Origin: Truepera sp. bin119 | GTDB lineage: Bacteria > Deinococcota > Deinococci > Deinococcales > Trueperaceae | Direction: 5' to 3' | DNA: 64,000 nt | Assembly (NCBI GenBank): GCA_002239005.1 | Contig: MPNL01000004.1 | Location: 62,001-126,000 of the forward strand | Shown here: positions 39,023-64,000 of the stretch, in pieces | Numbering within the stretch: position 1 is the stretch's first letter | Layout of the letters: each line of letters opens with the position of its first letter | Position numbers and translations under genes: made by a program | Notes under the pieces: generated by a model | Databases searched by the model: none | The model's input: only the letters and a program-made list of their open reading frames with translations | What the model was told of the DNA's origin: nothing

Positions 39023-39685
39023 TTATATACCAAAGTCACATTTGGGCTCGCCGCGGCCTATCCCCCCAACGTCATACTCGAAGGTCTCTATCTTCGGGTC
39101 GAGCACCTCGCCAAGGTTATTAAGCTCTCTCCATGTTTCCACCCGGCATAGTGCAAACGCTTGAATCTGGATCTTTGGATTAACTTGCCTCAGTCTTGCG
39201 GCACAACCAAATAGAGTGGAACCATTCGTTATGAAGTCGTCAATCAGCATCACTTTTGCCGGGGGGAATAGGTCCGTGATAACGCCTAATGAATCTCTGT
39301 GCCTTGTCGGTGTTGGGCGCTGTGAAGCAGAGCGCACACCTGTCGACCGGGGAACAGGCTCTCTTCTCTCAAGCAGGGGAACCACGGATTCTCCAATGCC
39401 GTTGCTCCTCATTGCCTCGGCAATTCTCTCGGGCACCCATAAGCTACCTGGTAGGTGACGTGAATGCTTCGGTACGGGAACTAAGGCACCAGCGTTGCCT
39501 AGAAGCTTTCCCAAGGGGTCCGGCAAGGGATCTGTAAGAACCCCGACAATGGTTTCTATGAACTCTCCTTCAGCTTGTTTCACCCCAGACCATAGGGCGC
39601 TCCGTACCTTTTTCGAGAATTCTTGCTTAGTCCTCGACGGGTAGATGAGCAGCGAGCCGATGCTAAGCTTTGAAGGGAAGCTCAC
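39023..39685 (-). CDS. ComF-like phosphoribosyltransferase, transposon cargo
   Basis: The 220-aa protein has the type I phosphoribosyltransferase PRPP loop VMLIDDFITNGST (residues 145-157) and an upstream VPVPKHSRHLPG segment like the ComF and amidophosphoribosyltransferase group. It lacks the zinc finger of ComF. It overlaps the DprA-like gene by 23 bases and starts at GTG 39685. The pair could make or process a nucleotide-derived molecule or act on DNA; function unknown. Confidence 0.7.
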   Translation of the reverse strand: MSFPSKLSIGSLLIYPSRTKQEFSKKVRSALWSGVKQAEGEFIETIVGVLTDPLPDPLGKLLGNAGALVPVPKHSRHLPGSLWVPERIAEAMRSNGIGESVVPLLERREPVPRSTGVRSASQRPTPTRHRDSLGVITDLFPPAKVMLIDDFITNGSTLFGCAARLRQVNPKIQIQAFALCRVETWRELNNLGEVLDPKIETFEYDVGGIGRGEPKCDFGI

Positions 39686-40373
39686 TGAGATCTTGCCAAT
39701 ATTCCCTGGGGTCCATACCTACCGGGAAGAGTTCGTCGAGCCAATCAACGATATCAGGGGGTTGGAAGGCTATCGCTCCGTATTCTTGCATCTCACGGGG
39801 CCAAGAGAATTCCTCTTCGATAAGGCACTTGGGGAGGAAGAGGTGACGACCGAGCCTAATCGCTTCCCAACCCTGATGTCGTGTGCCGCTCTCAGCCCCC
39901 GCCTCAATAATAATTGAACCTTCAGAGAGCAAGGCCATCGTGCGGTTGCGCATAGGGAAGTTTCTGGATTTCGGTGGGGTTCCTTCAGGAAATTGGGTTA
40001 CGACGAGGTGTTTGTCCATGAGACGCTTCTGAAGGCCGGCATTCTCTTTGGGGTAGCTAATATCCAGGCCAGTCCCGATTACTGCAATTGTCTTCCCCCC
40101 GGCAGAGATGGCGGCCAGATGAGCAGCTGTGTCGATGCCTTTTGCCAATCCGCTAACTACAACTCCACCGTGTTTAACTATTGCCCGGGCAATGGTCCTT
40201 GCCACCTTTAAGCCTTCCGGGGAAGGGCTTCTGGAGCCGATTACGCTGATTCTGGGGCGCAATCTGAGAAGGTTGGAATCGCCAGCCACAAACAGTTGCT
40301 CTGGAGCGTGCTTCCGTTCTATCTCATTGAGTTCGCCTATGAAGCTCTCGGTTGGCTGAGTTGATGCGATCAT
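39663..40373 (-). CDS. DprA/Smf-like Rossmann-fold protein, transposon cargo
   Basis: The 236-aa protein has the DprA core: ISVIGSRSPSPEGLKVA (residues 42-58), VSGLAKGIDTAAHLAAISAGGKTIAVIGTGLD, YPKENAGLQKRL and FPMRNRTMALLSEGSIIIEAG. It lacks the N-terminal SAM and C-terminal winged-helix domains of full DprA (about 360 aa), so it is nearer to the SLOG/TIGR00732 minimal forms. DprA loads RecA on single-stranded DNA; SLOG relatives occur in nucleotide-signal defence systems. AGGGAG precedes the ATG. Codon use is less GC-rich than in the flanking genes. Confidence 0.8.
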   Translation of the reverse strand: MIASTQPTESFIGELNEIERKHAPEQLFVAGDSNLLRLRPRISVIGSRSPSPEGLKVARTIARAIVKHGGVVVSGLAKGIDTAAHLAAISAGGKTIAVIGTGLDISYPKENAGLQKRLMDKHLVVTQFPEGTPPKSRNFPMRNRTMALLSEGSIIIEAGAESGTRHQGWEAIRLGRHLFLPKCLIEEEFSWPREMQEYGAIAFQPPDIVDWLDELFPVGMDPREYWQDLSELPFKA

Positions 40374-40402
40374 CTTAGCTCCCTACCGTATACCTATCCC
40401 AC

Positions 40403-40717
40403 TCAGGGTCGGCGCTTAACCACCGTGACATCCCGCACCACAGCTTTGGCTATGGCTAATTCCTCGGGTGTGGTAGGGATAGACATGTCAGCCGCTAGCT
40501 CAGCCTTGCGCGGCTGGTAGATGGTTCCGGTTTTAAGAGAGAAGAACCGCCTATCGGGGCAGTCACGGCAACGGTGGGTCATAGTGCGATGCTTGGCACC
40601 CGATTGGACGTTGAAGGAACCGCAGTGGGGGCAGACAGGGCCGCTGGGCCAGCGCTGCTCAGCAAACCACTTCTCAGCCACTTCGTCACTGGAAAACAGG
40701 TCCATGAGTTCGACCAT
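40403..40717 (-). pseudogene. IS1595-type transposase N-terminal fragment
   Basis: From ATG 40717 the frame reads MVELMDLFSSDEVAEKWF, then RWPSGPVCPHCGSFNVQSG, CRDCPDRRFFSLKTGTI: the zinc-ribbon domain of ISXO2/IS1595 transposases. After TGTIYQ it runs into unrelated sequence and stops at 104 aa with no DDE domain. It could still bind transposon ends. It is first in the cargo transcript, downstream of the promoter at 40785. Confidence 0.75.
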
Positions 40718-40784
40718 ATACCCTTGCGGTAGTGTTTTCCGGGTGCGCTGTGGGCCATTGTCTACCTCCCCAATATGACTCTGC

Positions 40785-40813
40785 TGTAACACGGGGGTGG
40801 CGAATGGTGTCAA
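40785..40813 (-). promoter_or_regulatory. Promoter inside the transposon (TTGACA-17-GTTACA)
   Basis: -35 TTGACA (complement 40808-40813), 17 bases, -10 GTTACA (40785-40790). It lies just inside the right terminal repeat and points at the transposase fragment and the DprA-PRTase genes. Confidence 0.65.
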
Positions 40814-40842
40814 GTGTTTTGTGACTTTGGTACATAAATCCC

Positions 40843-41313
40843 CTAATGCAAACACTTCAGGTGGCAACCGCTCCCGCTAGCCCCTCCCGGCTCAAAGCGG
40901 TAGCCAAGGCTCCTGCCCAACGCCTCCGTCGAGGCGCACCCTGAAGGGGCGGGGAGGGACAGGAGCAGGCAGCGGAGCCCGCTAGCCCGAGAGCACTCCT
41001 CGAGGGTCGTAACCAGGGTGCGGGCGTAGCCCCGGCGGCGGTGGGCCGGGTGGACGCAGATCCGCACGATCTCTGCAACCGAATCCGGCAAGGGTCGGGC
41101 GATGGCGAGCGCCACCACCGGACCCCAGGCCACGGGCGCCGCGGCGCGGACGAGGTGGAGGCGGAGTTGGCCGACCCAAGCCCCCCCCGCCGGGATCTCT
41201 TCCGACTCTCCGGGTAAGAGCGGGGGATCACAGCCCACAACCCGCTGCAGCAGCTTGACCTCGAAGCGATCCTCGTTCCGGTAGCGACGCACCTCGAGGC
41301 TCTGCGGCGGCAC
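40843..41313 (-). CDS. GNAT-family N-acetyltransferase
   Basis: The 156-aa protein has the acetyl-CoA motif VRICVHPAHRRRGYARTLVTTLEE, typical of GNAT motif A, and LLLSLPAPSG ... LGRSLGYRFEPGG toward the end. The substrate is unknown. GTG 41313 starts 5 bases after the stop of the membrane-protein gene, so the long upstream open frame is a shadow. Its TAG stop straddles the transposon boundary and would be the same without the insertion. Confidence 0.75.
   Translation of the reverse strand: MPPQSLEVRRYRNEDRFEVKLLQRVVGCDPPLLPGESEEIPAGGAWVGQLRLHLVRAAAPVAWGPVVALAIARPLPDSVAEIVRICVHPAHRRRGYARTLVTTLEECSRASGLRCLLLSLPAPSGCASTEALGRSLGYRFEPGGASGSGCHLKCLH
40844..40851. repeat. Target-site duplication TAATGCAA, right copy
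   Basis: Exact copy of 39011-39018, immediately after the right end of the transposon and within the last codons of the GNAT gene. Confidence 0.9.
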
Positions 41314-50616: not shown

Positions 50617-50737
50617 GGCTCTGTCTGAAAACGCCATATTCGCGAGTGGTCGGCGGAAACTAGGGTCGCGAAAACGCCTCTCTTATCGCTCAGGCGTTCG
50701 CAAAACTATCGGCCCTGGAAAGTTTTCAGACAGAGCC
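50617..50737. mobile_element. 121-bp MITE with 16-bp perfect terminal inverted repeats
   Basis: GGCTCTGTCTGAAAAC (50617-50632) is repeated inverted at 50722-50737, and TA flanks both sides. There is no coding capacity. TA duplications suggest mobilisation by an IS5- or IS630-like transposase. Its right end supplies the G of the TAG stop of the methyltransferase gene (TA from the target plus G of the repeat). Confidence 0.85.
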
Positions 50738-51984
50738 TAGTCCACCGGCTGGCACCTTCGTCCAGTGGCGACCGCGACGGTTAACCGTTGCGAGACGGGA
50801 GCCGTCGTCTGACCAACGTAGTCTCCGGCCAGTTTGACTGGCTGGAACCCTTGTTTTTCCCACCAATTTCTGCCTCTTTTCCCCGGAAGCAATAAGTCAA
50901 TTTCTTTGGCTGTCTGCCCTCCCCGCCCGTGATGGACTGAGATGCTTTTGTGCGGTGCCGTGGTAGACCGTATGAGAAGTTTTCGATTAGGCCAGGTCTC
51001 CTGTACTGCTGCGATGCACATCTTCGCGGTCTGACGCCGCTGGTCAGTTCTGATCAGTACGGCGGCCCCCTTTTTTAGGTGGCGACTAGCCTCCTGCAGG
51101 ACGGACCCAATCAATGTTTCGTAATCGGTTTTGTTTTTGTATCTTGCCGACCGGCGCCAGTCCTTGCGGAAGTTGTGACCCAAAAGCCATAGCCGTAGCC
51201 AGTGGTCGTTCCAGTAATCGGCTACGCCGCAGTAAGGGGGGGAGGTGATAAGGAGGCCGGCCTCCATACCTGCTTGCTTGGGGAGCTCATCACGTGCATC
51301 GCCAAGAATGGCTGTTCCCTGAGCTTGGTCCGGAATCCCGTAATGGTAACGTCGCCGTATCTTGTCGGTGAGCATTGCTACTGGATCCACGTCAGGTGGT
51401 CTTAGCAAACCTTTGTCGGTCCACCATCTCACGGCGTAGTCGGGGGAGTACGCGATCGTTGGAGACATTGAGTTGGACAAGCCGTCCTCCTTCTTGTCCT
51501 GCATGTGCAGGGCGATGAATGCCATCAAGGTTCGGTCTACTTCCGACCCCTTCCAGTCCAGTTCACGCCGTGCGGCGCGTAGCAGGGCTCTCACCTTGGG
51601 GGCCCAAGCCATTGCCTCGAATTGGCTGCGGCTCCGGCCGTCCTGCGGTTTCCGAGCCAGCCAGATCTCGTTTAGTCTTGCGATGACCTGCTCAGGGTCT
51701 TCCGCTGGCTGCAGCTTTGCTGCGGTGAAAATCCAAGCTACCGGGTTCACGTCAATACCAGTTGTGGGGCGGCCCATCACCGCAGCCGTAAACGGGCCGT
51801 TTCCTCGGCCGCAGAACGGGTCCAAGACGGGCTCCCCAACTTTCGTAAGGTTGCCTACGGCGTCCTGCACGAAGGTCGGTGGAAACATCGCCAAGTACCG
51901 CCCTAGGGCGTACCAACGGCCGGCAGCCGTGCTTCGTGGCCACGGCTGTTTGAATGCTGGCTGCTTTTGTGTGTTTTCTGTCAT
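50737..51984 (-). CDS. DNA methyltransferase (N4-cytosine/N6-adenine) of the HerA-NurA operon
   Basis: The 415-aa protein has the S-adenosylmethionine motif DPFCGRGNG (residues 55-63) and the catalytic motif TSPPYCG (247-253), in the I-then-IV order, with a target-recognition part between and after. It methylates an amino group in DNA; the site is unknown. Its ATG overlaps the nurA stop (ATGA, 51981-51984). The TAG stop is formed at the MITE junction, so the original C-terminus may have been longer. It may mark self DNA against the HerA-NurA machine. Confidence 0.85.
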   Translation of the reverse strand: MTENTQKQPAFKQPWPRSTAAGRWYALGRYLAMFPPTFVQDAVGNLTKVGEPVLDPFCGRGNGPFTAAVMGRPTTGIDVNPVAWIFTAAKLQPAEDPEQVIARLNEIWLARKPQDGRSRSQFEAMAWAPKVRALLRAARRELDWKGSEVDRTLMAFIALHMQDKKEDGLSNSMSPTIAYSPDYAVRWWTDKGLLRPPDVDPVAMLTDKIRRRYHYGIPDQAQGTAILGDARDELPKQAGMEAGLLITSPPYCGVADYWNDHWLRLWLLGHNFRKDWRRSARYKNKTDYETLIGSVLQEASRHLKKGAAVLIRTDQRRQTAKMCIAAVQETWPNRKLLIRSTTAPHKSISVHHGRGGQTAKEIDLLLPGKRGRNWWEKQGFQPVKLAGDYVGQTTAPVSQRLTVAVATGRRCQPVD

Positions 51985-53294
51985 GGCGCAAGACTTTTGA
52001 TTAGGTCTGTGCCGGCGCGGAGCGGGATTGCGGCCCGGTTGTGCGCACGGCGGAGGGCGAGGAATTGGTCTGTGCCTACTCCCAACGGCCCGGCCGTGTT
52101 GACCGCGTCTGCCAGCGCTAGGGGCGCCAAAGCGTTAGTGAGAGGCGGCTCTGCTTCCGGTTGAGCGATGTTGAGTACCAGACGCTGACCGTTTTTCGTC
52201 TTCATTACGATTGGCCGGCCGTAGTGCGTTAGTTCGCCCCACGGCTTAGGACTGTCTGAGTGACGGGCCACTATGTTGGCCCGTATGTAATCGTTGTCTG
52301 GCAACCACAGACGCTCCCTTGGGATATTTTGCCCCGGCGCTGGGGCGCGGTCCAGCTCCTCGGCGTGGTTCACGAATGGTCCGCTCTTGACCCCCGACAT
52401 TACCAAGAGCAAGGCTCCCGGGTGTTTTTCATTGAGCACGCTTTGGATGTCTTGCAGTTCCTTGCGGATGGCCCGTGCCAAGACCGCAATTGTTCCGAAT
52501 GCTGCGAGCTGTCCGTCCATTACGAACGCAGTGTTGCCAATAGCGACGCGCCCCAACTCCGATTTCACAAGGTAGCGCAAGCTGTTCACTAGGGCGAGAA
52601 TTTCCAGCGTGTCACGGACCCGGCTGTGGCACTCTGTCGGGGATTCGTTCTCCCGGAATTGCTCATGAATCCTGAGGCCGTCCGTGGGTAGGACTTCAAC
52701 CCCGCAAGTTGGGCAATAATCTACTTGGCCCGGGCGCGGCAAGCTCAAGTTTTCTTTCGAACAGTCTGGGTTAGGGCAGTGGTCGACTTTGTGGTTGGGG
52801 CCGAGCAGATGATGCAGCGTTTCGGCAAAGGTCTCGCCGCCGACGTTTGCCTTTTCCAGTTCCCTGTTGAAAATCTGCCTGAACCAGGTTTTTGGGTCTG
52901 TGCCGTCCTTTTTTCCAGCGTTCATGCCTGGGAGCATCATTCCCAGGCTTTGGCCTCTTTCAGTTTCTCGCAGGAGCCGCGGGTTGACCGCACCGCTCTC
53001 CGGGAGGCGTTGCAACGTTTTCAGCTTCTTCAGGTCCATTACTACCATCCCTAGGGAAACCAAGCCAGCTTCCGTAGATGGAAGCGCTCCCGGGATCGGC
53101 TGGTAGACATCCGACCCATCTATAGCCAAGATGTGGGTTCGCGAGGTTCCTGCAGGGCAGGGTTGGAATGGAGGGATCGGCAACGGTTGTCCAGTGTGCC
53201 TGTCCTGTAGTTCCTGGCGAAATTCGTCCACCACCCCTTTCTCGGCAATGGCTCGAATCGCCGCTAGGCCAGCGCGTTCGTTTTCGTATGGCAT
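51981..53294 (-). CDS. nurA: NurA-domain nuclease with zinc-ribbon insertion
   Basis: The 437-aa protein has two NurA signatures: ILAIDGSDV (D59) and AFVMDGQLAAFG (D260), the manganese-binding acidic residues of this RNase H-like nuclease. Between them sits a CPNPDC ... CPTC zinc ribbon (Cys 173, 178, 194, 197), not usual in NurA. NurA resects DNA 5' ends when driven by the HerA ATPase, which is encoded directly upstream with a 9-base gap. It is coupled to the downstream methyltransferase. Confidence 0.75.
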   Translation of the reverse strand: MPYENERAGLAAIRAIAEKGVVDEFRQELQDRHTGQPLPIPPFQPCPAGTSRTHILAIDGSDVYQPIPGALPSTEAGLVSLGMVVMDLKKLKTLQRLPESGAVNPRLLRETERGQSLGMMLPGMNAGKKDGTDPKTWFRQIFNRELEKANVGGETFAETLHHLLGPNHKVDHCPNPDCSKENLSLPRPGQVDYCPTCGVEVLPTDGLRIHEQFRENESPTECHSRVRDTLEILALVNSLRYLVKSELGRVAIGNTAFVMDGQLAAFGTIAVLARAIRKELQDIQSVLNEKHPGALLLVMSGVKSGPFVNHAEELDRAPAPGQNIPRERLWLPDNDYIRANIVARHSDSPKPWGELTHYGRPIVMKTKNGQRLVLNIAQPEAEPPLTNALAPLALADAVNTAGPLGVGTDQFLALRRAHNRAAIPLRAGTDLIKSLAP

Positions 53295-53303
53295 GACGCC
53301 TCA

Positions 53304-55538
53304 CTACAACGGTGGTTGCTCTGTGCTGTGGCCGTTCTCAGCTTGAAAGGTGCTCTGGCTAGGATCAGTCGTATTGCCGACATCCTCGTCCTCGATACTG
53401 AACTTGTCAAGTTGGACTGGCACTGTGTAGGCCTGCGACAACGTCCTGATGCGCACGAACCCCTGCTCGCTGACTCTACCGATCTGGTCGATGAAATCGG
53501 CGAAATCCATGTAGTCCGCTACTACGCGCCGCTCAGCGCCCGAGTTGAGGTAGGACAGCACCCAGTTGTCGGTTTCGCTGAGGATTTCGGGCATTACAGA
53601 GCTGGGCGCCTGTGTCGCCAGCACCATGCCTATGTTGAGTTTGCTACCCTCTTTCGCAGCCCTCGCCCATACGGTCGTCAAGTTGTCGCGGGCGTTGGCG
53701 CGGGGTAACAGGTTGTGGGCTTCCTCGATGTATATGATGATGTGCCCTTTCGTCGCTTGGGATGCGTCCGGGGGCGCGGATGGGTCATGCTGAGCCAGAA
53801 CGCTCCTAAACCTGTCTTGCTGGGACCGGAAGATGCGCCACATGATCCGTTCGGCTGCGGCTTGGTTTTGCTCTGGATCGCCAGCCGATTGGTCGATGAC
53901 GACCAGTTTCCCTTGCCTCAGGTCCTCCACTACGGCTTCGGCGAAGTCATTGGTGGTACCGGGGTCATGTTGCTCCCGAACCCTCTGGAAAGTCCTGGGC
54001 CCATTTCGGGATTCGAAGATACGAAGGACAGCGCGGAATCTGGGATCGGCCCAAGACTCGTGGCTCCGGCTCACGTTGGTGATGTAGCGCTGTTCAAAGG
54101 TGTCGAAGTGTCCCCTTTTGTCTTCAATGAATCGGGACAGGGCGGTGAACACTGTGATGAGTTGGTCCCAGGTGATTTTGAACTGGTTGTTGACCGCCGC
54201 TTGGAGGATGGTGGCCGCTTGGTGATAATCGGTTTGGTTATCAGTGCTGGTATTCTTGTCTCGATGCAGGGCATCAATGAGATCCTTTGAGAACATTGAG
54301 TGTAGGCCCGGTCCTCGAATGGTCGGCTCCCACTCTGGAGTCTGCAGTCCAGCGGCCGCCAGTGCTGTCCGATAAGCCAGAACCGCTCGGTAGTATCGTG
54401 TTTTGGCGCTCATGTCGCCGGCGGCAGTGGGTTGTACTGTCAGATCTGCATCCCTGAAAGCGGTCGTGTAGCGTGCCGTTTCGTTAGCCATGATGCCTTT
54501 GATGATTTCCTTGCCCGCCAGCATCTGATCCAAGGCTTGTTCGACCAGCCTCGTGTCTTGGTCATCCTGCCAATCGCGTGGTATCTGGTCCCCGAAGAAA
54601 TTCAGCTTCATGACATTCCGGCATTTATCCCAATCCACGGGAATCAGCCCGTAAGTCGCTACCTCGGACTGCCGCGGTAGCCCAATAGTTTCGTGGACGC
54701 GGTGCAGGCCCTTGCCGTCCTGGTAGTTGTCCTGGGCGTATTCGCCGCTCAGGTCAAAAATGACCTGCCCTACGCGGTGTTCGGGGTTGTCCTCCCGAAT
54801 CCGGTAGATGTTTTCGGCTACGATTTTGAGGCCGTTGGATTTGCCAGAGCGCGACATACCGAAGTAAGCGGTACGCCTTTTCATGATGTCTGTGGGGTTG
54901 ATCCTGAAGTCGGCTATTGTCGCGTTGTCGGAATCCGCGGCTGCGAATCTGGTGCGGCCTATTTTGGCTGCTTTACGGGCGATTGGGATGTCGTTGGTGC
55001 GGTGCTGGTGATTTACGATTAGGTTCAGCGATTCTGCGTCTGGTTTCCACACCATCAGTTCATTAACGGCGTAGTAGTTGGCGATGTCTTCTGCGTAGCG
55101 GTAGGTGCCGTCTTCACGGGCAATGAAAGTACCTAGGACGGAGCATTCCAGTCCGTGCAGGGAAATTTTATCCTTTACCCAGTTGGGGAGTCGGTCCGCC
55201 CAGGACCCTTGGTTTCCCGAGTCCTCGATGCTTTCTTGCCTGGTCTGGTCGTTGGCAGCAGCAGCCGGGAGGCGGGCCTCGTTCTGGATTCTAAGCAGGA
55301 TGAACGACTTGTCGCCGTCTAGCTTGGCTGCCATCAGAAACGCGTTCTTGGGCAGACCACCAGCTTGCTCCCGGTCGTAGTCATACACGGCGACTACAGC
55401 ACTAGTGTACGAGATCGTGTACACGCTGCCGACGAGTTTCGCTCGGTTGCGGAACGGAGTCAGCGTAGGCTGGCCAGCACTCTGTTTCAGTCCTTCCAAC
55501 AGCGACGTGCTCTCGCTTGCGGATGTTTCCAGAACCAT
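53304..55538 (-). CDS. herA: HerA-family DNA translocase ATPase
   Basis: The 744-aa protein has Walker A GMSRSGKS (residues 227-234), Walker B IIIYIEEAHNL (600-610), an N-terminal HAS-barrel-like region and a C-terminal ATQAPSSVMPEILSETDNW segment (sensor and arginine finger zone). HerA forms a hexameric ring that pumps DNA into NurA. It is longer than archaeal HerA (about 500 aa), with an insertion of about 200 residues between the Walker motifs. First gene of the herA-nurA-methyltransferase operon; base composition is lower in GC than the sdh genes. Confidence 0.85.
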   Translation of the reverse strand: MVLETSASESTSLLEGLKQSAGQPTLTPFRNRAKLVGSVYTISYTSAVVAVYDYDREQAGGLPKNAFLMAAKLDGDKSFILLRIQNEARLPAAAANDQTRQESIEDSGNQGSWADRLPNWVKDKISLHGLECSVLGTFIAREDGTYRYAEDIANYYAVNELMVWKPDAESLNLIVNHQHRTNDIPIARKAAKIGRTRFAAADSDNATIADFRINPTDIMKRRTAYFGMSRSGKSNGLKIVAENIYRIREDNPEHRVGQVIFDLSGEYAQDNYQDGKGLHRVHETIGLPRQSEVATYGLIPVDWDKCRNVMKLNFFGDQIPRDWQDDQDTRLVEQALDQMLAGKEIIKGIMANETARYTTAFRDADLTVQPTAAGDMSAKTRYYRAVLAYRTALAAAGLQTPEWEPTIRGPGLHSMFSKDLIDALHRDKNTSTDNQTDYHQAATILQAAVNNQFKITWDQLITVFTALSRFIEDKRGHFDTFEQRYITNVSRSHESWADPRFRAVLRIFESRNGPRTFQRVREQHDPGTTNDFAEAVVEDLRQGKLVVIDQSAGDPEQNQAAAERIMWRIFRSQQDRFRSVLAQHDPSAPPDASQATKGHIIIYIEEAHNLLPRANARDNLTTVWARAAKEGSKLNIGMVLATQAPSSVMPEILSETDNWVLSYLNSGAERRVVADYMDFADFIDQIGRVSEQGFVRIRTLSQAYTVPVQLDKFSIEDEDVGNTTDPSQSTFQAENGHSTEQPPL

Positions 55539-58244: not shown

Positions 58245-59684
58245 TCAGGCCCCCTCTGCGATAGCTTCATGCTCTTCGGTTAGTTCAGTGGTTGGCTCGA
58301 GGGTCTCTAGGTCGGCTTCGGTCTCGAGGGGGTCGACCTCGGGCAACTTGGCTGCCGCCTCGCGGACGTCGAGTTTGCCGGTCACCACATCGGAGATGAG
58401 GCGGGTGCGGTATTCGCTCAGGAGGCACACCTCACGCTCCGAGCCCTGTCGCGCCCTATCTATCCTGCAAGTCATATGCTGCAGGACCTCAACGATCTGC
58501 TTCTGTTCATCTAAGGGGGGGAGTAGCACCGGCATCCACCCGATGTCATCAATGTTGAAGTGGCCAACCGTTGATCCCTGTGATGCCAATTGTATGCGTG
58601 TCCTCGGCGGCCCAGCATATATCATGTGAACTAGAAAACGCGGGTCATATTGGGTGTGATCGGGCCTTAGCAGAACGGTGCGTTGGCCGAGGCAAACTCG
58701 ACGTCCTTCCGGCACCAGACACGCTTCTCCTGCCGGTGCTTCTCGTGTGAAGATGACATCGCCAGGTTCAGGAACACCTCGTTTCGTCCACTCCTTATAC
58801 GAGGAGCTGTCAGTACAGTAAGTACCCTCCCAGTGGAGGTTCCCGCCACGCACTGCTGCTGTCCGAATTACGAAGTAGTCACTTTCAGTAACAGCAGGAG
58901 CGGTCTTGTGCTCACAGTCTATGAGTTGTGTCAACACGCGCTTCAGACCTATAACCCCCCAATGCTCCGGCACCTCCCCCAACCACTCCACGCCCGAGTC
59001 CTTATAGGCCGGATAGGGCTGACCGGTTCGGACATCGATCTGGCCGGTGACGGCCTGGTGGATGATGGCCTGTTTTTGTTCCTCGAGGAGGGTGATCAGC
59101 TTCTGTTTGGCACGGATGTAGCGTTGGATGCGTCGGTCGGTGTAGTCGAGGAAGCGGGTGATGGCGGTTTGTTCGGGGAGGGGGGGAAACGGTAACGGTT
59201 GCACAGCGAAATCTCTATACCTGAAATCAGAAGACCTTTCCCTAATCCCTTTGGCGAGTGCTTGTATCCAACCGTTGCGCGCCATTTCGCGTAGGGTGTA
59301 TGCGTAGAAGTAGGCGTTAACCTGTGATCTGGGTTTGCAGACTGAGTAGACAGGGGTCCCCTTACCATCCGAATCGGCAACACCGATAGCTCCAGCGAAA
59401 CCATCCATAGCATGGATAACCAGGTCACCCTGCCGAATACCCTGGTAACCGATCTCCTTCAGAGACTCTGTAAATCCCGCTTCCCGCCGATTCTTGCGAA
59501 GCGTCACGACGCCATCGCGGAAGCATGTGACGATTTCGTCTTCGTCGCGAACCGGCCGCTCCATCTTCTGAAACAGCCACTTAGCGCGCTCAATGTCCCA
59601 ATGTGCTGGCACGTTGCCAAGCCATTCCACTCCGGAAGGCTTATGGGTTGGGTAGGGTTTGAAGGTAGGGATGAAGGGTGCCAT
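58245..59684 (-). CDS. hsdS: Type I restriction-modification specificity subunit
   Basis: The 479-aa protein has two target-recognition halves, each opening with SGVEWLGxVPxHW (residues about 17-29 and 230-242) and each followed by PPLPEQ/PPLDEQ and a long coiled-coil spacer (ITRFLDYTDRRIQRYI; IVEVLQHMTCRIDRA). It picks the bipartite DNA site for HsdM and HsdR. It is separated from hsdM by three genes of another function. No hsdR is in the window. Confidence 0.9.
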   Translation of the reverse strand: MAPFIPTFKPYPTHKPSGVEWLGNVPAHWDIERAKWLFQKMERPVRDEDEIVTCFRDGVVTLRKNRREAGFTESLKEIGYQGIRQGDLVIHAMDGFAGAIGVADSDGKGTPVYSVCKPRSQVNAYFYAYTLREMARNGWIQALAKGIRERSSDFRYRDFAVQPLPFPPLPEQTAITRFLDYTDRRIQRYIRAKQKLITLLEEQKQAIIHQAVTGQIDVRTGQPYPAYKDSGVEWLGEVPEHWGVIGLKRVLTQLIDCEHKTAPAVTESDYFVIRTAAVRGGNLHWEGTYCTDSSSYKEWTKRGVPEPGDVIFTREAPAGEACLVPEGRRVCLGQRTVLLRPDHTQYDPRFLVHMIYAGPPRTRIQLASQGSTVGHFNIDDIGWMPVLLPPLDEQKQIVEVLQHMTCRIDRARQGSEREVCLLSEYRTRLISDVVTGKLDVREAAAKLPEVDPLETEADLETLEPTTELTEEHEAIAEGA

Positions 59685-59696
59685 ACGGTCGAACCT

Positions 59697-59906
59697 TCAA
59701 AGCCTTACATAACGGTACACGTCTCTGATGTGAGCACTAAAGTATGTCCCATGTGAGCCTGCATGCATCAAAGCCTGCCATTCATACTCAGGAACATCGA
59801 AGTATTGATACACTGCGCCGTTGTGGAATTCGATCTCAAGAGTCGAAGAGTTCGGTTCGTAACCTACGGACGTCAGATGAGATGAGCTTACTGGGGTTCT
59901 TCGCAT
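59697..59906 (-). CDS. KTSC-domain protein
   Basis: The 69-aa protein matches the KTSC domain: SSHLTSVGYEPNSSTLEIEF, NGAVYQYFDVPEYEW, and SHGTYFSAHIRDVYRYVRL. KTSC is a small domain named for the C-terminus of lysyl-tRNA synthetase; its role is unknown, perhaps nucleic-acid binding. ATG 59906 (GGAG 8 bases upstream) is used rather than the longer frame. It overlaps the herA gene by 19 bases and precedes hsdS by 12, so it is part of the same operon. Confidence 0.8.
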   Translation of the reverse strand: MRRTPVSSSHLTSVGYEPNSSTLEIEFHNGAVYQYFDVPEYEWQALMHAGSHGTYFSAHIRDVYRYVRL

Positions 59907-61771
59907 GGTTTCACTCCAGAATCCTGTGTGCTTTTTGGATTTTCGCTGCGCCATTTTTCGAGCAGGAGATTATAGTTTTTTGATTGCCTCTGGGGACTCC
60001 AACCTCTGGCAGCGTCCGGGTCATATATCAAGGGGTCATCGCTATCGGGACGGCGATTCTTGGCTGGCGCGTCTACGATGGCGCGCAGCGGCAAGTGAAC
60101 GGCTTCTCCAATGACAATCGCTTCGCCTGTACGCAATGCTGGCAGCATACTCAAAAGTCCCTCGAGGTTATCGCTTACTACCCCTGCAACGTGAGATCGA
60201 TCAGTGTCATTCGCAAGACGCATAGCAAAGATGGTTCCGCACTGTGACAGGATTGTCGAGTCGATCTCTGAAGGCCGCTGGCTCACAATCATTGCCCCCA
60301 ACCCATATTTGCGGCCTTCCCTTACAACACGTCGGGCTGCAGTTGCCGCTGGCCCGATATTTCCAACTCCGAGATAAGAGTGGGCTTCTTCAAGCACTAT
60401 AAGTAATGGCCTGCGTCTTCCACCTTCAGGAAGGTGGCGGCCCCAAAACAGTGCATCGAATAACAACCTGAGAAGCACTCCAATCAGATCCATCAGGATA
60501 AGCTCTGGAACCCCGGACAGATCGAGTATGGTGATTGGCTTGTTCCCACCCAACCACGACTCCAAGAGCGCGTCTAAGTCTTTTGTAGGTTGAGCGTTGA
60601 GGTCTTGGTGACTCGGCTCTGGACACCACGGACCCGGACGAAACAGAAAATCGTACCTCGTGTCTTTCAAACGAGACTCGACAGCAACCAGTTGCCTCCG
60701 AATGTTGAGAGAGCTCGCGCTCAAGTACACCCGATTAGAACCTCCTGCTGTAATCGGAAGGTATTCGGGTGGTTGCACAGTCATGATGTCGCCGATCAGC
60801 TTCTCGCCTTCTGCATCGCAGGCGATGGCCTCCGTGTCTCTGGTTTGGTTTACGCCTTGTGCAGTGTGGTGTGACAACACATCACGGTATAATTCGTACC
60901 AAAAGCGATGAATGCTAAACGGTATTGGGGTGTCCACTGTCATGGTATCAGGAGTAACCCCGCTACGGCTTTTGGCCTGAAGGGAGGCCAGTTTCAACCG
61001 CTTAAGCTGATCGACAAGGGCAACACGGTCAGTATCGGAGACTCCTCCGAAAGGAGTAACTCTCAGTAGCTCATCGAAGCTCAAAGCCCAATATGGGACA
61101 AATAATGGCTCCTCGTCCCTGCTCGTATCCGCGTTGATGCGAAAGATAGTAGCTCTATCTTTCAAGGCAGTGTGATATTCACCATGGATATCTAGGACAA
61201 TAATGCGTGCGGATGGATACCGATCCTGATCCGAAAAGGATGCAAGGAGGTTGGCTACCGTCGTGGATTTGCCCGCACCTGTCGTACCCAAGACAGCACA
61301 ATGTCGAGTTACCAACCGATTAACATCAACCAGTGCCGGGATGGATTCCGCGCTCGCGACGCCCCCGATGCGGACATGGCCCGGCTCATCTGGCTTTCCA
61401 TAGATTTTTGTCAAGTCCTGTTCGGTGACCAAATGAGCTTCATCATTGATTGTCGGATACTGCGAGACACCACGCTGAAAAGGTCCTGAGCGTTGACCTT
61501 CACCTATAAGTTGCACTTTGAGCCACCGGTACCCATACGGTTCAGTGTGAGCCAGCGTCTCAGGGACCGCTCCAGCCCCAACTTGAGATACGATCCCAAA
61601 CAGATCAACGAAGCCGATAGGGATGCGGATGAAGCTCCCAATCTGCCCAATACGATAGCCATGACCGTCGATGAAAACCAAGCCCGAAATCGTGTCCTTG
61701 TCGAGTGCAACGCTGACCGTTGCACCCTGGACATCTTGAACGGTACCTAAATAGGTGGAATTATAATGCAT
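59888..61771 (-). CDS. herA: HerA-type ATPase of a SIR2-HerA defence pair
   Basis: The 627-aa protein has an N-terminal HAS-barrel (GTVQDVQGATVSVAL), Walker A GTTGAGKST (residues 162-170), IIVLDIHGEYH, Walker B LLIVLEEAHSYLG (456-468) and SQRPSEIDSTILSQCGT (sensor 2 region). It overlaps the SIR2 gene by 11 bases. In known SIR2-HerA systems the two proteins form one large complex that degrades NAD+ or DNA upon phage infection. Base composition is lower in GC than the host genes. Confidence 0.85.
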   Translation of the reverse strand: MHYNSTYLGTVQDVQGATVSVALDKDTISGLVFIDGHGYRIGQIGSFIRIPIGFVDLFGIVSQVGAGAVPETLAHTEPYGYRWLKVQLIGEGQRSGPFQRGVSQYPTINDEAHLVTEQDLTKIYGKPDEPGHVRIGGVASAESIPALVDVNRLVTRHCAVLGTTGAGKSTTVANLLASFSDQDRYPSARIIVLDIHGEYHTALKDRATIFRINADTSRDEEPLFVPYWALSFDELLRVTPFGGVSDTDRVALVDQLKRLKLASLQAKSRSGVTPDTMTVDTPIPFSIHRFWYELYRDVLSHHTAQGVNQTRDTEAIACDAEGEKLIGDIMTVQPPEYLPITAGGSNRVYLSASSLNIRRQLVAVESRLKDTRYDFLFRPGPWCPEPSHQDLNAQPTKDLDALLESWLGGNKPITILDLSGVPELILMDLIGVLLRLLFDALFWGRHLPEGGRRRPLLIVLEEAHSYLGVGNIGPAATAARRVVREGRKYGLGAMIVSQRPSEIDSTILSQCGTIFAMRLANDTDRSHVAGVVSDNLEGLLSMLPALRTGEAIVIGEAVHLPLRAIVDAPAKNRRPDSDDPLIYDPDAARGWSPQRQSKNYNLLLEKWRSENPKSTQDSGVKPCEEPQ

Positions 61772-62975
61772 CCCTGTAGTTCTCTACGGATATTGATCGA
61801 ACGTTTCCCACGATCTCTTGCAGGAATTTCCCGAAGACTGCAAAGTCCCCAAGCTTGAATTCAGCCTTGTACTTGGTTTGACCATCGGTAGAAGCAGTTT
61901 GCTCCCAAGTCACTGCGCTACCAGTATCGGCTGGAAGTGATTCAGAGTCCCTTTCCAACCACTCTACTCGCCGCCCACCAATAATCCCACCGTTACGCGC
62001 AAAAACGTTGAGATTAGGCTGATTCGTAGCAAGGTTAACAGCATTATCATATCCTCCGAGCTGGCCAAACATCAGGGCAAAAGCTACGGCGGTCTGTGTA
62101 TGCTGTAGTCCTTGTATGATCGTCTCGTTTATATGATCGTCGCGAAAAGAGTAGCCACAAAGGATAAGTACAGCAGTAGGCGACTTCAAGAATGAGCGAA
62201 ACCTATCAACCATAGCCAAGTAGGGCATCCGTCTACTCTCTTGATATTTGAGATGTGAAGGATGGATGACTCGTCTTGGTCCGTCTTCTCTCACGGTTCC
62301 CCGGAAAACCTCCCGGCTCTCATTCTGATACCAGTTTATTGACCCGTGGAGCTTCCACAGACGTGTCCAAGGTGGTAAGTCTCCTTCCAGCAGGAGTGGG
62401 TCAAAAAGGGGCCTTAGCACACCTGAGAAACCGTCAAAGTACGGGACACGAGACTTCTCAAGTGCTTGCTCTAACAGCAGATCATAGTTGGTTGTGAAAA
62501 TTTCAATGGGAAACTTGCGCTGTGTCGCGTGCGCCCATAACGAAACACTGTGATATGGCGTCTGGTCGCTAGGAAGCTTCTTGTTGACGGTTCGGTGGAT
62601 CAGATTACAGACGGCGCTATCCAGCGTTTGTAGTTGCTGAGCAGAAAGGCCACGTACCTTATCGTTTCCCACAACTGCCTCAAGTGCTCGAACGTGAGAG
62701 AGAAAATCTTCCACAGTTGGATTGCAGTTACCATCCTTCTTTAGGTTGCCGTCAACTTTTCCCCAAAGGTTTCTGTGTTCAGCACACTGTTGCAGTTGTT
62801 CACGAACCAACTTGCTAATCCCAGCAATGTCGGGAATAAGGGGACACCGATTTTCATCTTGAATAGACATAGGGCAACCTGCCCCTAGAAAGAGACCGAT
62901 TGGTCTCTTGTCCACAGAAAGACACTGCTGAAGGTGTGAGATTCGAGGTAACAGATCCTCTCGGGTATAGTTCAT
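61761..62975 (-). CDS. SIR2-family protein (NADase effector of SIR2-HerA)
   Basis: The 404-aa protein has SIR2 signatures: GLFLGAGCPMS (residues 27-37), FTTNYDLLLEQAL (160-172), WKLHGSINW (207-215; H210 as catalytic base) and CGYSFRDDHIN (273-283). Defence SIR2 proteins hydrolyse NAD+ to stop phage growth. Its ATG overlaps the hsdM stop (ATGA, 62972-62975), so it is made from the same message as the type I methylase. It overlaps the HerA gene downstream. Confidence 0.85.
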   Translation of the reverse strand: MNYTREDLLPRISHLQQCLSVDKRPIGLFLGAGCPMSIQDENRCPLIPDIAGISKLVREQLQQCAEHRNLWGKVDGNLKKDGNCNPTVEDFLSHVRALEAVVGNDKVRGLSAQQLQTLDSAVCNLIHRTVNKKLPSDQTPYHSVSLWAHATQRKFPIEIFTTNYDLLLEQALEKSRVPYFDGFSGVLRPLFDPLLLEGDLPPWTRLWKLHGSINWYQNESREVFRGTVREDGPRRVIHPSHLKYQESRRMPYLAMVDRFRSFLKSPTAVLILCGYSFRDDHINETIIQGLQHTQTAVAFALMFGQLGGYDNAVNLATNQPNLNVFARNGGIIGGRRVEWLERDSESLPADTGSAVTWEQTASTDGQTKYKAEFKLGDFAVFGKFLQEIVGNVRSISVENYRDAL

Positions 62976-64000
62976 TGCTGCCCCGCCCCTAAAATCTCCC
63001 CCAACAACCCCTCAGTCTCCCGCTCCACCGCCAGAATATCCTCCCTGATCTCCTCGGGGCTCCTTAGCGGCTGCGGCTTGTAGAAATAGCGGGTGAAGCT
63101 GATCTCATAGCCGATCTTTACCTTGTCAGGCCGGTACCAGGCATCGGCGGCATAGGGGAGGACCTCACGCTCGAGGAAGGCGTCGATCCCACCTAGCTCG
63201 GTAAGCGGGATCTGCTCGCTGTCCCGCAGGTCGGAGTCCGGTTCGTACTCCACCACTGCGGGTCTACCGTCGATCGTGGTCGCAAACAGCCCCCTTAATG
63301 GGTCGGCCTCGGTCCCCCGCTTGTGGATCTTCCTGATGATCGGGGGAGCACTCTCACTGGGCTCGCCCCAAGGACGGACTCTTCGGGTCTCTCTCAGCCG
63401 CTTGATCTCAGCAGCCTTGTAGACCCGGTTCGGATCGGCCCCCTCGAGCCTAAGCGGCCGCTCGACCGTGACCTTCCAGTAGCCGAAGTCGGCATTGTCA
63501 AAGATCTTGCTTGGAACGGACTCTCGCTTCGCTCGGGTCTGCAAAGACGGACCCTTCGGGTCACTCTCCTCGAACTCGAGCAAGGTCTGACAGATCCGGT
63601 CGATATCCGCTTCGCCGAGTTCACAGTTCTTGGTCCCCAGGTTCTTCCGTAAGGGCTGATACCACTGAGTGGCATCGATCAACTGCACCTTCCCCCTACG
63701 ATGCTCGGGCTTCCGGTTAGTGAGCAGCCAGATATAGGTGGCGATCCCGGTGTTGTAGAACATGTTGAGCGGCAGAGCGACGATCGCCTCGAGCCAGTCG
63801 TTCTCGATGATCCAGCGTCTGATATTGCTCTCCCCCTGACCGGCATCCCCGGTAAAGAGCGAACTACCATTGTGGACCTCGGCGATCCGGCTCCCCAAGG
63901 GACTCTCCCGCTTCAGCTTGCTGAGCTTGTTGACCAGGAAGAGCAGCTGACCATCGCTCGAGCGGGTGACCAGCGAGTACTCCGGATCACCGCCATGCTC
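62972..64000 (-). CDS. hsdM: Type I restriction-modification DNA methylase, C-terminal part
   Basis: The gene runs off the right edge; 342 codons are present. NGSSLFTGDAGQGESNIRRWIIENDWLEAIVALP, FYNTGIATYIW and DFGYWKVTVERPLRL are HsdM signatures; the S-adenosylmethionine and NPPF motifs lie beyond the window. Between EFEES and SKIF, which are adjacent in relatives, 17 extra residues appear (63512-63562), made of two short hairpin elements. A third hairpin lies at 63370. The insert is in frame. Function with HsdS: methylation of the bipartite recognition site. Confidence 0.9.
   Translation of the reverse strand, partial: EHGGDPEYSLVTRSSDGQLLFLVNKLSKLKRESPLGSRIAEVHNGSSLFTGDAGQGESNIRRWIIENDWLEAIVALPLNMFYNTGIATYIWLLTNRKPEHRRGKVQLIDATQWYQPLRKNLGTKNCELGEADIDRICQTLLEFEESDPKGPSLQTRAKRESVPSKIFDNADFGYWKVTVERPLRLEGADPNRVYKAAEIKRLRETRRVRPWGEPSESAPPIIRKIHKRGTEADPLRGLFATTIDGRPAVVEYEPDSDLRDSEQIPLTELGGIDAFLEREVLPYAADAWYRPDKVKIGYEISFTRYFYKPQPLRSPEEIREDILAVERETEGLLGEILGAGQQ
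63370..63389 (+). repeat. Short hairpin element in hsdM
   Basis: AAGGACGGACTCTTCGGGTC. Lies where the protein reads ETRRVRPWGE, a stretch less conserved in HsdM. Confidence 0.6.
63513..63539 (+). repeat. Short hairpin element in hsdM, variant loop
   Basis: GGAACGGACTCTCGCTTCGC followed by TCGGGTC; encodes TRAKRESVP on the minus strand. Confidence 0.6.
63543..63562 (+). repeat. Short hairpin element in hsdM (DPKGPSL)
   Basis: AAAGACGGACCCTTCGGGTC encodes DPKGPSL on the minus strand, matching DPANPSL in the transposase copies. Confidence 0.7.

What the first reader, a model, noticed from the sequence alone, without database searches (positions are those of the whole stretch)
50737..55538. HerA-NurA-DNA methyltransferase operon: candidate new restriction-like defence system
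A HerA translocase, a NurA nuclease with an unusual zinc-ribbon insertion and an amino-methyltransferase are encoded as one unit (9-base gap, then a 4-base overlap) inside a defence island. HerA-NurA is known as a DNA end-resection machine, mainly archaeal. Adding a methyltransferase suggests self/non-self marking with HerA-NurA as the destroying arm. I do not know a named system with just these three parts.
Basis: partly seen in the sequence, partly recalled or inferred. Interest (0 to 1): 0.85.

Follow-up and report, generated by a model that had tools for sequence, protein, structure and literature searches.

The report
HerA–NurA nuclease with swappable methyltransferase
Three adjacent genes encode a DNA-pumping motor, a DNA-cutting enzyme and a DNA-marking enzyme that travel together between distant bacteria, archaea and a prophage, and most likely form an unnamed restriction-modification-like defence in which the marking enzyme has been exchanged several times during evolution.

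Summary
In detail: HerA (53304-55538), NurA (51981-53294) and a DNA amino-methyltransferase (50737-51984) are encoded as one unit, with the stated 9-base gap and 4-base overlap, in a low-GC defence island. NurA-only searches gave 24 loci of this HerA-NurA clade, in at least four bacterial phyla, on an archaeal plasmid and in a Vibrio prophage. A DNA methyltransferase is the direct neighbour in 19. It is of three kinds (permuted N4/N6, D12/Dam-like, beta-order), lies 5' or 3', and its kind needs six changes on the HerA and NurA trees. But close precedents exist. The nearest solved relatives are TdpA/TdpB, the HerA/NurA-like arm of the phosphorothioate-linked TdpABC system, and the Thermus ICETh1 tdtA operon already combines NurA, a HerA/FtsK ATPase and an N4/N6 methylase, there needed for DNA donation. 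Best reading: a TdpAB-like translocating nuclease with methylation replacing phosphorothioation as the self mark. No activity was tested. A new variant of a known kind; no name found in PADLOC, NCBIfam or the papers searched.

The parts
53304..55538 (-). HerA-like hexameric dsDNA translocase, 744 aa
   Evidence: PF01935 1.5e-6; PADLOC HerA 1.5e-15; best PDB sequence match of its family profile is TdpA, 98.8 bits against 67.5 for the next
51981..53294 (-). NurA-like nuclease, 437 aa, with a four-Cys zinc-ribbon insertion (C173, C178, C194, C197)
   Evidence: Homolog L003 matches PF09376 at 4.5e-24; model matches TdpB Z 9.3 and SsoNurA Z 7.2; D59, E231, D260, K303, Y336 invariant in 23/23
50737..51984 (-). 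Circularly permuted amino-DNA-methyltransferase, 415 aa, TSPPY motif IV (N4-cytosine predicted)
   Evidence: PF01555 6.2e-9; motif order from the alignment to beta-class MTases; same MTase kind beside HerA-NurA in L001, L002, L014, L017, L021, L109, L110, L114
50615..50740 (.). MITE-like repeat with 18-bp terminal inverted repeats; its right end supplies the MTase stop codon
   Evidence: Inverted repeat; 5-6 copies in the genome, the others 77-85% identical; sequence

Best explanation
A restriction-modification-like defence system. Inferred mechanism: the MTase methylates an exocyclic amine (probably N4-cytosine) at its motif on host DNA. HerA, as a hexameric ring, loads on dsDNA and pumps it into a NurA dimer, which cuts both strands processively. 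Shown here: the gene unit, homology of all three proteins, conservation of catalytic residues, recurrent MTase partnership with exchange of MTase kind, mobility and defence context. Known for relatives, not tested here: archaeal and bacterial HerA-NurA form 6:2 complexes, and the Thermococcus complex degrades both strands of dsDNA (PMC12977600). Not shown: modification, methyl-sensitivity of HerA-NurA, phage resistance. Because the same core stands beside three MTase kinds (m4C-type and m6A-type), I favour a core that senses base modification in a general way over one that reads one motif; an MTase that itself recruits HerA-NurA is listed as a rival.
For: NurA-only searches found 24 loci, 19 with a DNA MTase as direct neighbour (maps; Pfam check), most junctions at -4 to +16 bases; at a generous 5% background the chance is ~6e-21, though loci are not fully independent. 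HerA and NurA of the clade retrieve the same five plasmids in independent searches. HerA and NurA trees agree in their main clades, and MTase kind needs 6 changes on each. Within the window's clade the same MTase kind persists across phyla at ~30% identity. Nearest solved relatives are TdpA/TdpB. Defence context: SIR2-HerA and type I RM near the window trio; a prophage copy in a record with Shedu- and Gabija-annotated genes. In L115 one ~960-bp deletion removed the NurA C-terminus and most of the MTase together.
Against: Three Nostocales plasmids keep HerA-NurA (with an XRE regulator) without a neighbouring DNA MTase, and none is annotated as such in the parts of two of these plasmids that were read; L104 has only a type III-like MTase several genes away. 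No target motif, methylation data or phage data. Thermus tdtA shows that a similar gene set can serve DNA donation (PMC5365140). MTases of this kind also occur without HerA-NurA.
Confidence: 0.6

Rival explanations
1. Anti-invader system in which the MTase is the recognition subunit that recruits HerA-NurA to unmethylated sites (as in type I/III or ISP enzymes), so that HerA-NurA has no methyl sense of its own.
For: The core has no evident target-recognition domain; the MTase is the only obvious sequence reader; tight operon structure.
Against: Six changes of MTase kind on the trees, with 5' or 3' position, would each demand a new protein interface.
Confidence: 0.18
2. DNA-donation machine like the Thermus ICETh1 tdtA operon: HerA pumps host DNA outwards, NurA trims it, and the methylase is accessory.
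For: The tdtA operon encodes a NurA-like protein, the HerA/FtsK ATPase TdtA and a 410-aa N4/N6 methylase; TdtA, NurA and the type IIG enzyme are needed for donation while the methylase has only minor effect. A HerA-like plus same-kind MTase pair without NurA occurs in a relative of the same order (L082).
Against: Order differs (NurA-TdtA-MTase against HerA-NurA-MTase); no type IIG enzyme in the unit and no integrase among the ORFs scanned from 50.7 to 63.9 kb. The clade lies on plasmids, in a prophage and in defence islands of very different hosts, including a haloarchaeon.
Confidence: 0.1
3. DNA-repair HerA-NurA (end resection) with a methyltransferase acting in regulation or strand marking.
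For: HerA-NurA of archaea and Deinococcus are studied as end-resection enzymes; this is the only NurA found in the genome.
Against: Only 4 of 111 genomes of the phylum carry this NurA; most same-family genomes have no detectable NurA at all; patchy, plasmid- and prophage-borne distribution; swapped MTases.
Confidence: 0.08

Closest known systems
TdpABC (TdpA/TdpB structures 8wet, 8wfd, 8y1k)
   Same: HerA-like translocase plus NurA-like nuclease; TdpA is the best PDB sequence match of this HerA family (98.8 bits) and TdpB the best structural match of this NurA (Z 9.3). From my own knowledge (paper not in the library) TdpAB restricts phage and is held off self DNA by the phosphorothioate mark laid by TdpC.
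   Different: Self mark: a base methyltransferase instead of a phosphorothioation enzyme; this NurA carries a zinc-ribbon insertion and is longer (437 against 375 aa); similarity to TdpA/B is remote.
Thermus thermophilus ICETh1 tdtA operon (PMC5365140, PMC7767461)
   Same: NurA-like nuclease, HerA/FtsK-family ATPase and an N4/N6 methylase of similar size (410 aa) in one operon on a mobile element.
   Different: Also holds a type IIG restriction enzyme; other gene order; shown to act in DNA donation; sequences not comparable here.
SIR2-HerA and DUF4297-HerA anti-phage systems
   Same: HerA coupled to an effector enzyme in defence islands; one SIR2-HerA pair lies 4-7 kb away in this window.
   Different: Effector here is NurA, with a methyltransferase; no SIR2 or DUF4297 in the unit; this HerA is remote from their models (E about 1e-15, against 4e-152 for the other HerA of the window).
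Canonical archaeal / Deinococcus HerA-NurA
   Same: Same two protein families; the Thermococcus complex degrades dsDNA (PMC12977600).
   Different: Not described as paired with a methyltransferase; the window NurA does not reach the NurA Pfam model on its own; this clade is patchy and mobile rather than housekeeping.

Membership tests
TdpABC | HerA-like TdpA homolog | tested here: met
   Best PDB match of the family profile, 2.5e-27
TdpABC | NurA-like TdpB homolog | tested here: met
   Foldseek probability 0.98, VIA Z 9.3; model pLDDT only 54, so fold-level support
TdpABC | Phosphorothioation enzyme TdpC encoded with the pair | tested here: not met
   No such gene among the window ORFs scanned from 50.7 to 63.9 kb; an MTase takes the place
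Restriction-modification | DNA methyltransferase encoded with a DNA nuclease as a conserved unit | tested here: met
   19 of 24 loci
Restriction-modification | Cleavage blocked by the cognate methylation | not testable with these tools
   Needs enzymology or methylome data
Housekeeping HerA-NurA repair pair | Widely conserved in the host lineage | tested here: not met
   4 of 111 phylum genomes carry this NurA; own genome has no PF09376 hit
ICETh1 tdtA operon | Type IIG RM enzyme in the operon and NurA-HerA-MTase order | tested here: not met
   order is HerA-NurA-MTase and the unit is bounded by a MITE-like repeat and an IS1 fragment
SIR2-HerA / DUF4297-HerA | SIR2 or DUF4297 effector beside HerA | tested here: not met
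   The neighbour is a NurA homolog
BREX / DISARM / MADS | Their signature genes (PglZ/BrxC, DrmA/B, other mad genes) | tested here: not met
   PADLOC scan of the ten ORFs from 50.7 to 63.9 kb lists none of the BREX or DISARM genes among the hits shown, and only weak shared-domain hits to mad2, mad3 and mad8

The most novel reading that the evidence does not exclude
HerA-NurA (TdpAB-like) is a general restriction engine that is indifferent to the chemistry of the self mark: lineages have paired it with permuted m4C-type, beta-order or D12 m6A-type methyltransferases, and in TdpABC with phosphorothioation. This would be a class of restriction-modification without a site-reading endonuclease, whose specificity is exchanged simply by swapping the modifying enzyme.
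Probability: 0.4. Interest if true: 0.85.

Novelty: new variant of a known kind. Interest (0 to 1): 0.7.

Why it matters
HerA-NurA is usually taught as a repair machine, although recent work on the Thermococcus complex argues that it cannot make the overhangs needed for recombination and may be antiviral (PMC12977600). A widespread, mobile HerA-NurA clade tied to exchangeable DNA methyltransferases gives that idea a concrete, testable system, and would show how one nuclease core can use several kinds of self mark. No model for this NurA clade or the combined system was found in PADLOC 2.0 or NCBIfam, so it is probably missed by current defence-system annotation.

Tried and rejected
Scan of viral contigs with the NurA alignment: no relative. 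NurA profile against PDB sequences: no significant NurA hit, only zinc-finger chance matches from the ribbon and TdpB at E 0.35; fold comparison and the L003 homolog were needed. MTase structure prediction: pLDDT 41, discarded. Idea that the Thermus-like NurA-HerA loci L083-L086 are TdpAB or members of this clade: no PDB match for L085 HerA at E 1e-10 or for L085 NurA at E 1 and only weak profile hits; set aside as another NurA-HerA family. Idea that this MTase kind occurs only with HerA-NurA: rejected, it also sits beside a ~1,415-aa AAA ATPase on Rhizobiales plasmids. The TdpABC paper itself was not in the library, nor were ICETh1 sequences.

Full report
OBSERVATION. On the minus strand, HerA (744 aa) is followed after 9 bases by a NurA-like protein (437 aa), whose end overlaps the MTase (415 aa) by 4 bases. 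HerA matches PF01935, the MTase PF01555. The window NurA itself has no significant Pfam, PADLOC or NCBIfam NurA hit. It is nevertheless a NurA: its 28%-identical homolog in L003 (E 2e-35) matches PF09376 at 4.5e-24 over the full domain, and the AlphaFold2 model of the window protein (pLDDT 54, pTM 0.59) finds TdpB (Z 9.3) and S. solfataricus NurA (Z 7.2) first. The model is weak, so this is fold-level support only.

CONSERVATION. I searched with NurA alone, so that the MTase could not bias the result: genome contigs, plasmids, 111 genomes of the own phylum, 400 genomes of the phylum of L003, 64 of the phylum of L002, 398 of the phylum of L001 (only L001 itself), phages. Counting one of two near-identical prophages, this gave 24 loci, all with HerA beside NurA. 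In 19 the direct neighbour of the pair is a DNA methyltransferase (maps; Pfam): nine of the window's permuted N4/N6 kind (window, L001, L002, L014, L017, L021, L109, L110, L114), seven D12/Dam-like (L003, L015, L016, L102, L106, L107, L111), three beta-order N4/N6 (L103, L105, L108). The MTase is 3' or 5' of the pair, and in L103 and L111 on the opposite strand; most same-strand junctions are -4 to +16 bases. Exceptions are three near-identical Nostocales plasmid loci (L018-L020), L104 and L115. Even at a 5% background for an MTase neighbour the count has a chance of ~6e-21; related loci make this an overstatement, but 13 of 15 rough lineages still give ~1e-15 (the lineage count is my own estimate).

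EXCHANGE OF THE MTASE. On maximum-likelihood trees of NurA and HerA the MTase label needs six changes, counting the loci without one as a fourth state. The two trees agree on the main clades. The window's clade (window, L001, L002, L014, L109, L110, L114, L115) spans several phyla and keeps the permuted MTase, with one loss. In L115, ~93% identical to L114, one ~960-bp deletion took the NurA C-terminus and most of the MTase together; in L110 NurA is split while the MTase is intact.

CONTEXT. The window trio starts just after sdhB, where GC falls from ~66% to ~55%. Beyond HerA lie an IS1 fragment, a DUF6615 gene, and type I RM genes with a SIR2-HerA pair between hsdM and hsdS. A MITE-like repeat with 5-6 genomic copies supplies the MTase stop codon; the core motifs lie well upstream of it. 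In the genome no other NurA was found, and the only clear HerA genes are the two in this window. Only 4 of 111 genomes of the phylum carry this NurA. So it is not a housekeeping copy. Relatives lie on a haloarchaeal plasmid, a Deferribacter megaplasmid and a Vibrio prophage beside the integrase, in a record that also has Shedu- and Gabija-annotated genes. In the prophage copy HerA is split into two overlapping frames, and in Deferribacter HerA is interrupted by an IS200/IS605 element, so those two copies may be inactive.

MECHANISM. Best-supported: methylation marks self; HerA pumps unmarked dsDNA into a NurA dimer that destroys it. Homology, catalytic conservation (D59, E231, D260, K303, Y336 in 23/23), operon structure and partnership are shown. 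6:2 assembly and dsDNA degradation are known for relatives (PMC12977600). Methylation, methyl-sensitivity and phage resistance are inferred. TSPPY suggests N4-cytosine by general knowledge of MTase motifs; the D12 partners are predicted m6A. A core that serves both kinds argues for general sensing of modified bases, but recruitment by the MTase is not excluded.

KNOWN RELATIVES. TdpA is by far the best PDB sequence match of the HerA family (98.8 bits against 67.5 for the next) and TdpB the best structural match of NurA. TdpABC, as I recall it, couples such a pair to phosphorothioation; the paper was not in the library. The Thermus ICETh1 tdtA operon holds a type IIG enzyme, a NurA-like protein, TdtA and an N4/N6 methylase and is required for DNA donation, the methylase least so. 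Recent surveys of HerA/FtsK capture systems and BREX-related systems do not mention NurA. Searches for HerA and NurA with methyltransferase, methylase or defence terms found no paper whose title or abstract names this trio. The library lacks most subscription papers, so absence there is weak evidence.

VERDICT. The system works like a restriction-modification system built on a TdpAB-like core. It is not filed as TdpABC (TdpC not met) or as any named type. New variant of a known kind.

Noticed in passing
window 58245-64000: A SIR2-HerA pair (61761-62975, 59888-61771) with a KTSC gene (59697-59954) is embedded between hsdS (58245-59684) and hsdM (62972-64000, cut by the window end) of a type I RM operon.
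   Followed up: partly
L116 6965-12315; L118 6965-12324: Relatives of the permuted MTase sit convergent to a ~1,415-aa AAA ATPase on Rhizobium and Bradyrhizobium plasmids, perhaps another unnamed modification-linked system.
   Followed up: no
L083-L086: A second, different NurA-HerA family in genomes of the same order, in L083 and L085 near RM-like genes; in L086 the HerA-like ORF is 2,129 aa long.
   Followed up: partly
L082 1439-4419: HerA-like protein followed by a same-kind MTase but no NurA, in a relative of the same order; the gene order recalls tdtA-methylase of ICETh1.
   Followed up: partly
L003 9221-12858; L102 9480-12964; L104 9419-12948: In one sub-clade NurA is followed by a UvrD-like helicase and a PD-(D/E)XK nuclease (AddAB-like), an apparent extension of the system.
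   Followed up: partly
L018 5467-5715; L019 5463-5711; L020 5466-5714: Nostocales plasmids carry a conserved XRE-type regulator directly upstream of HerA-NurA and lack a neighbouring MTase.
   Followed up: partly
window 39663-40867: Short DprA-like gene (236 aa) and an IS1595 zinc-ribbon fragment in a separate low-GC patch.
   Followed up: no
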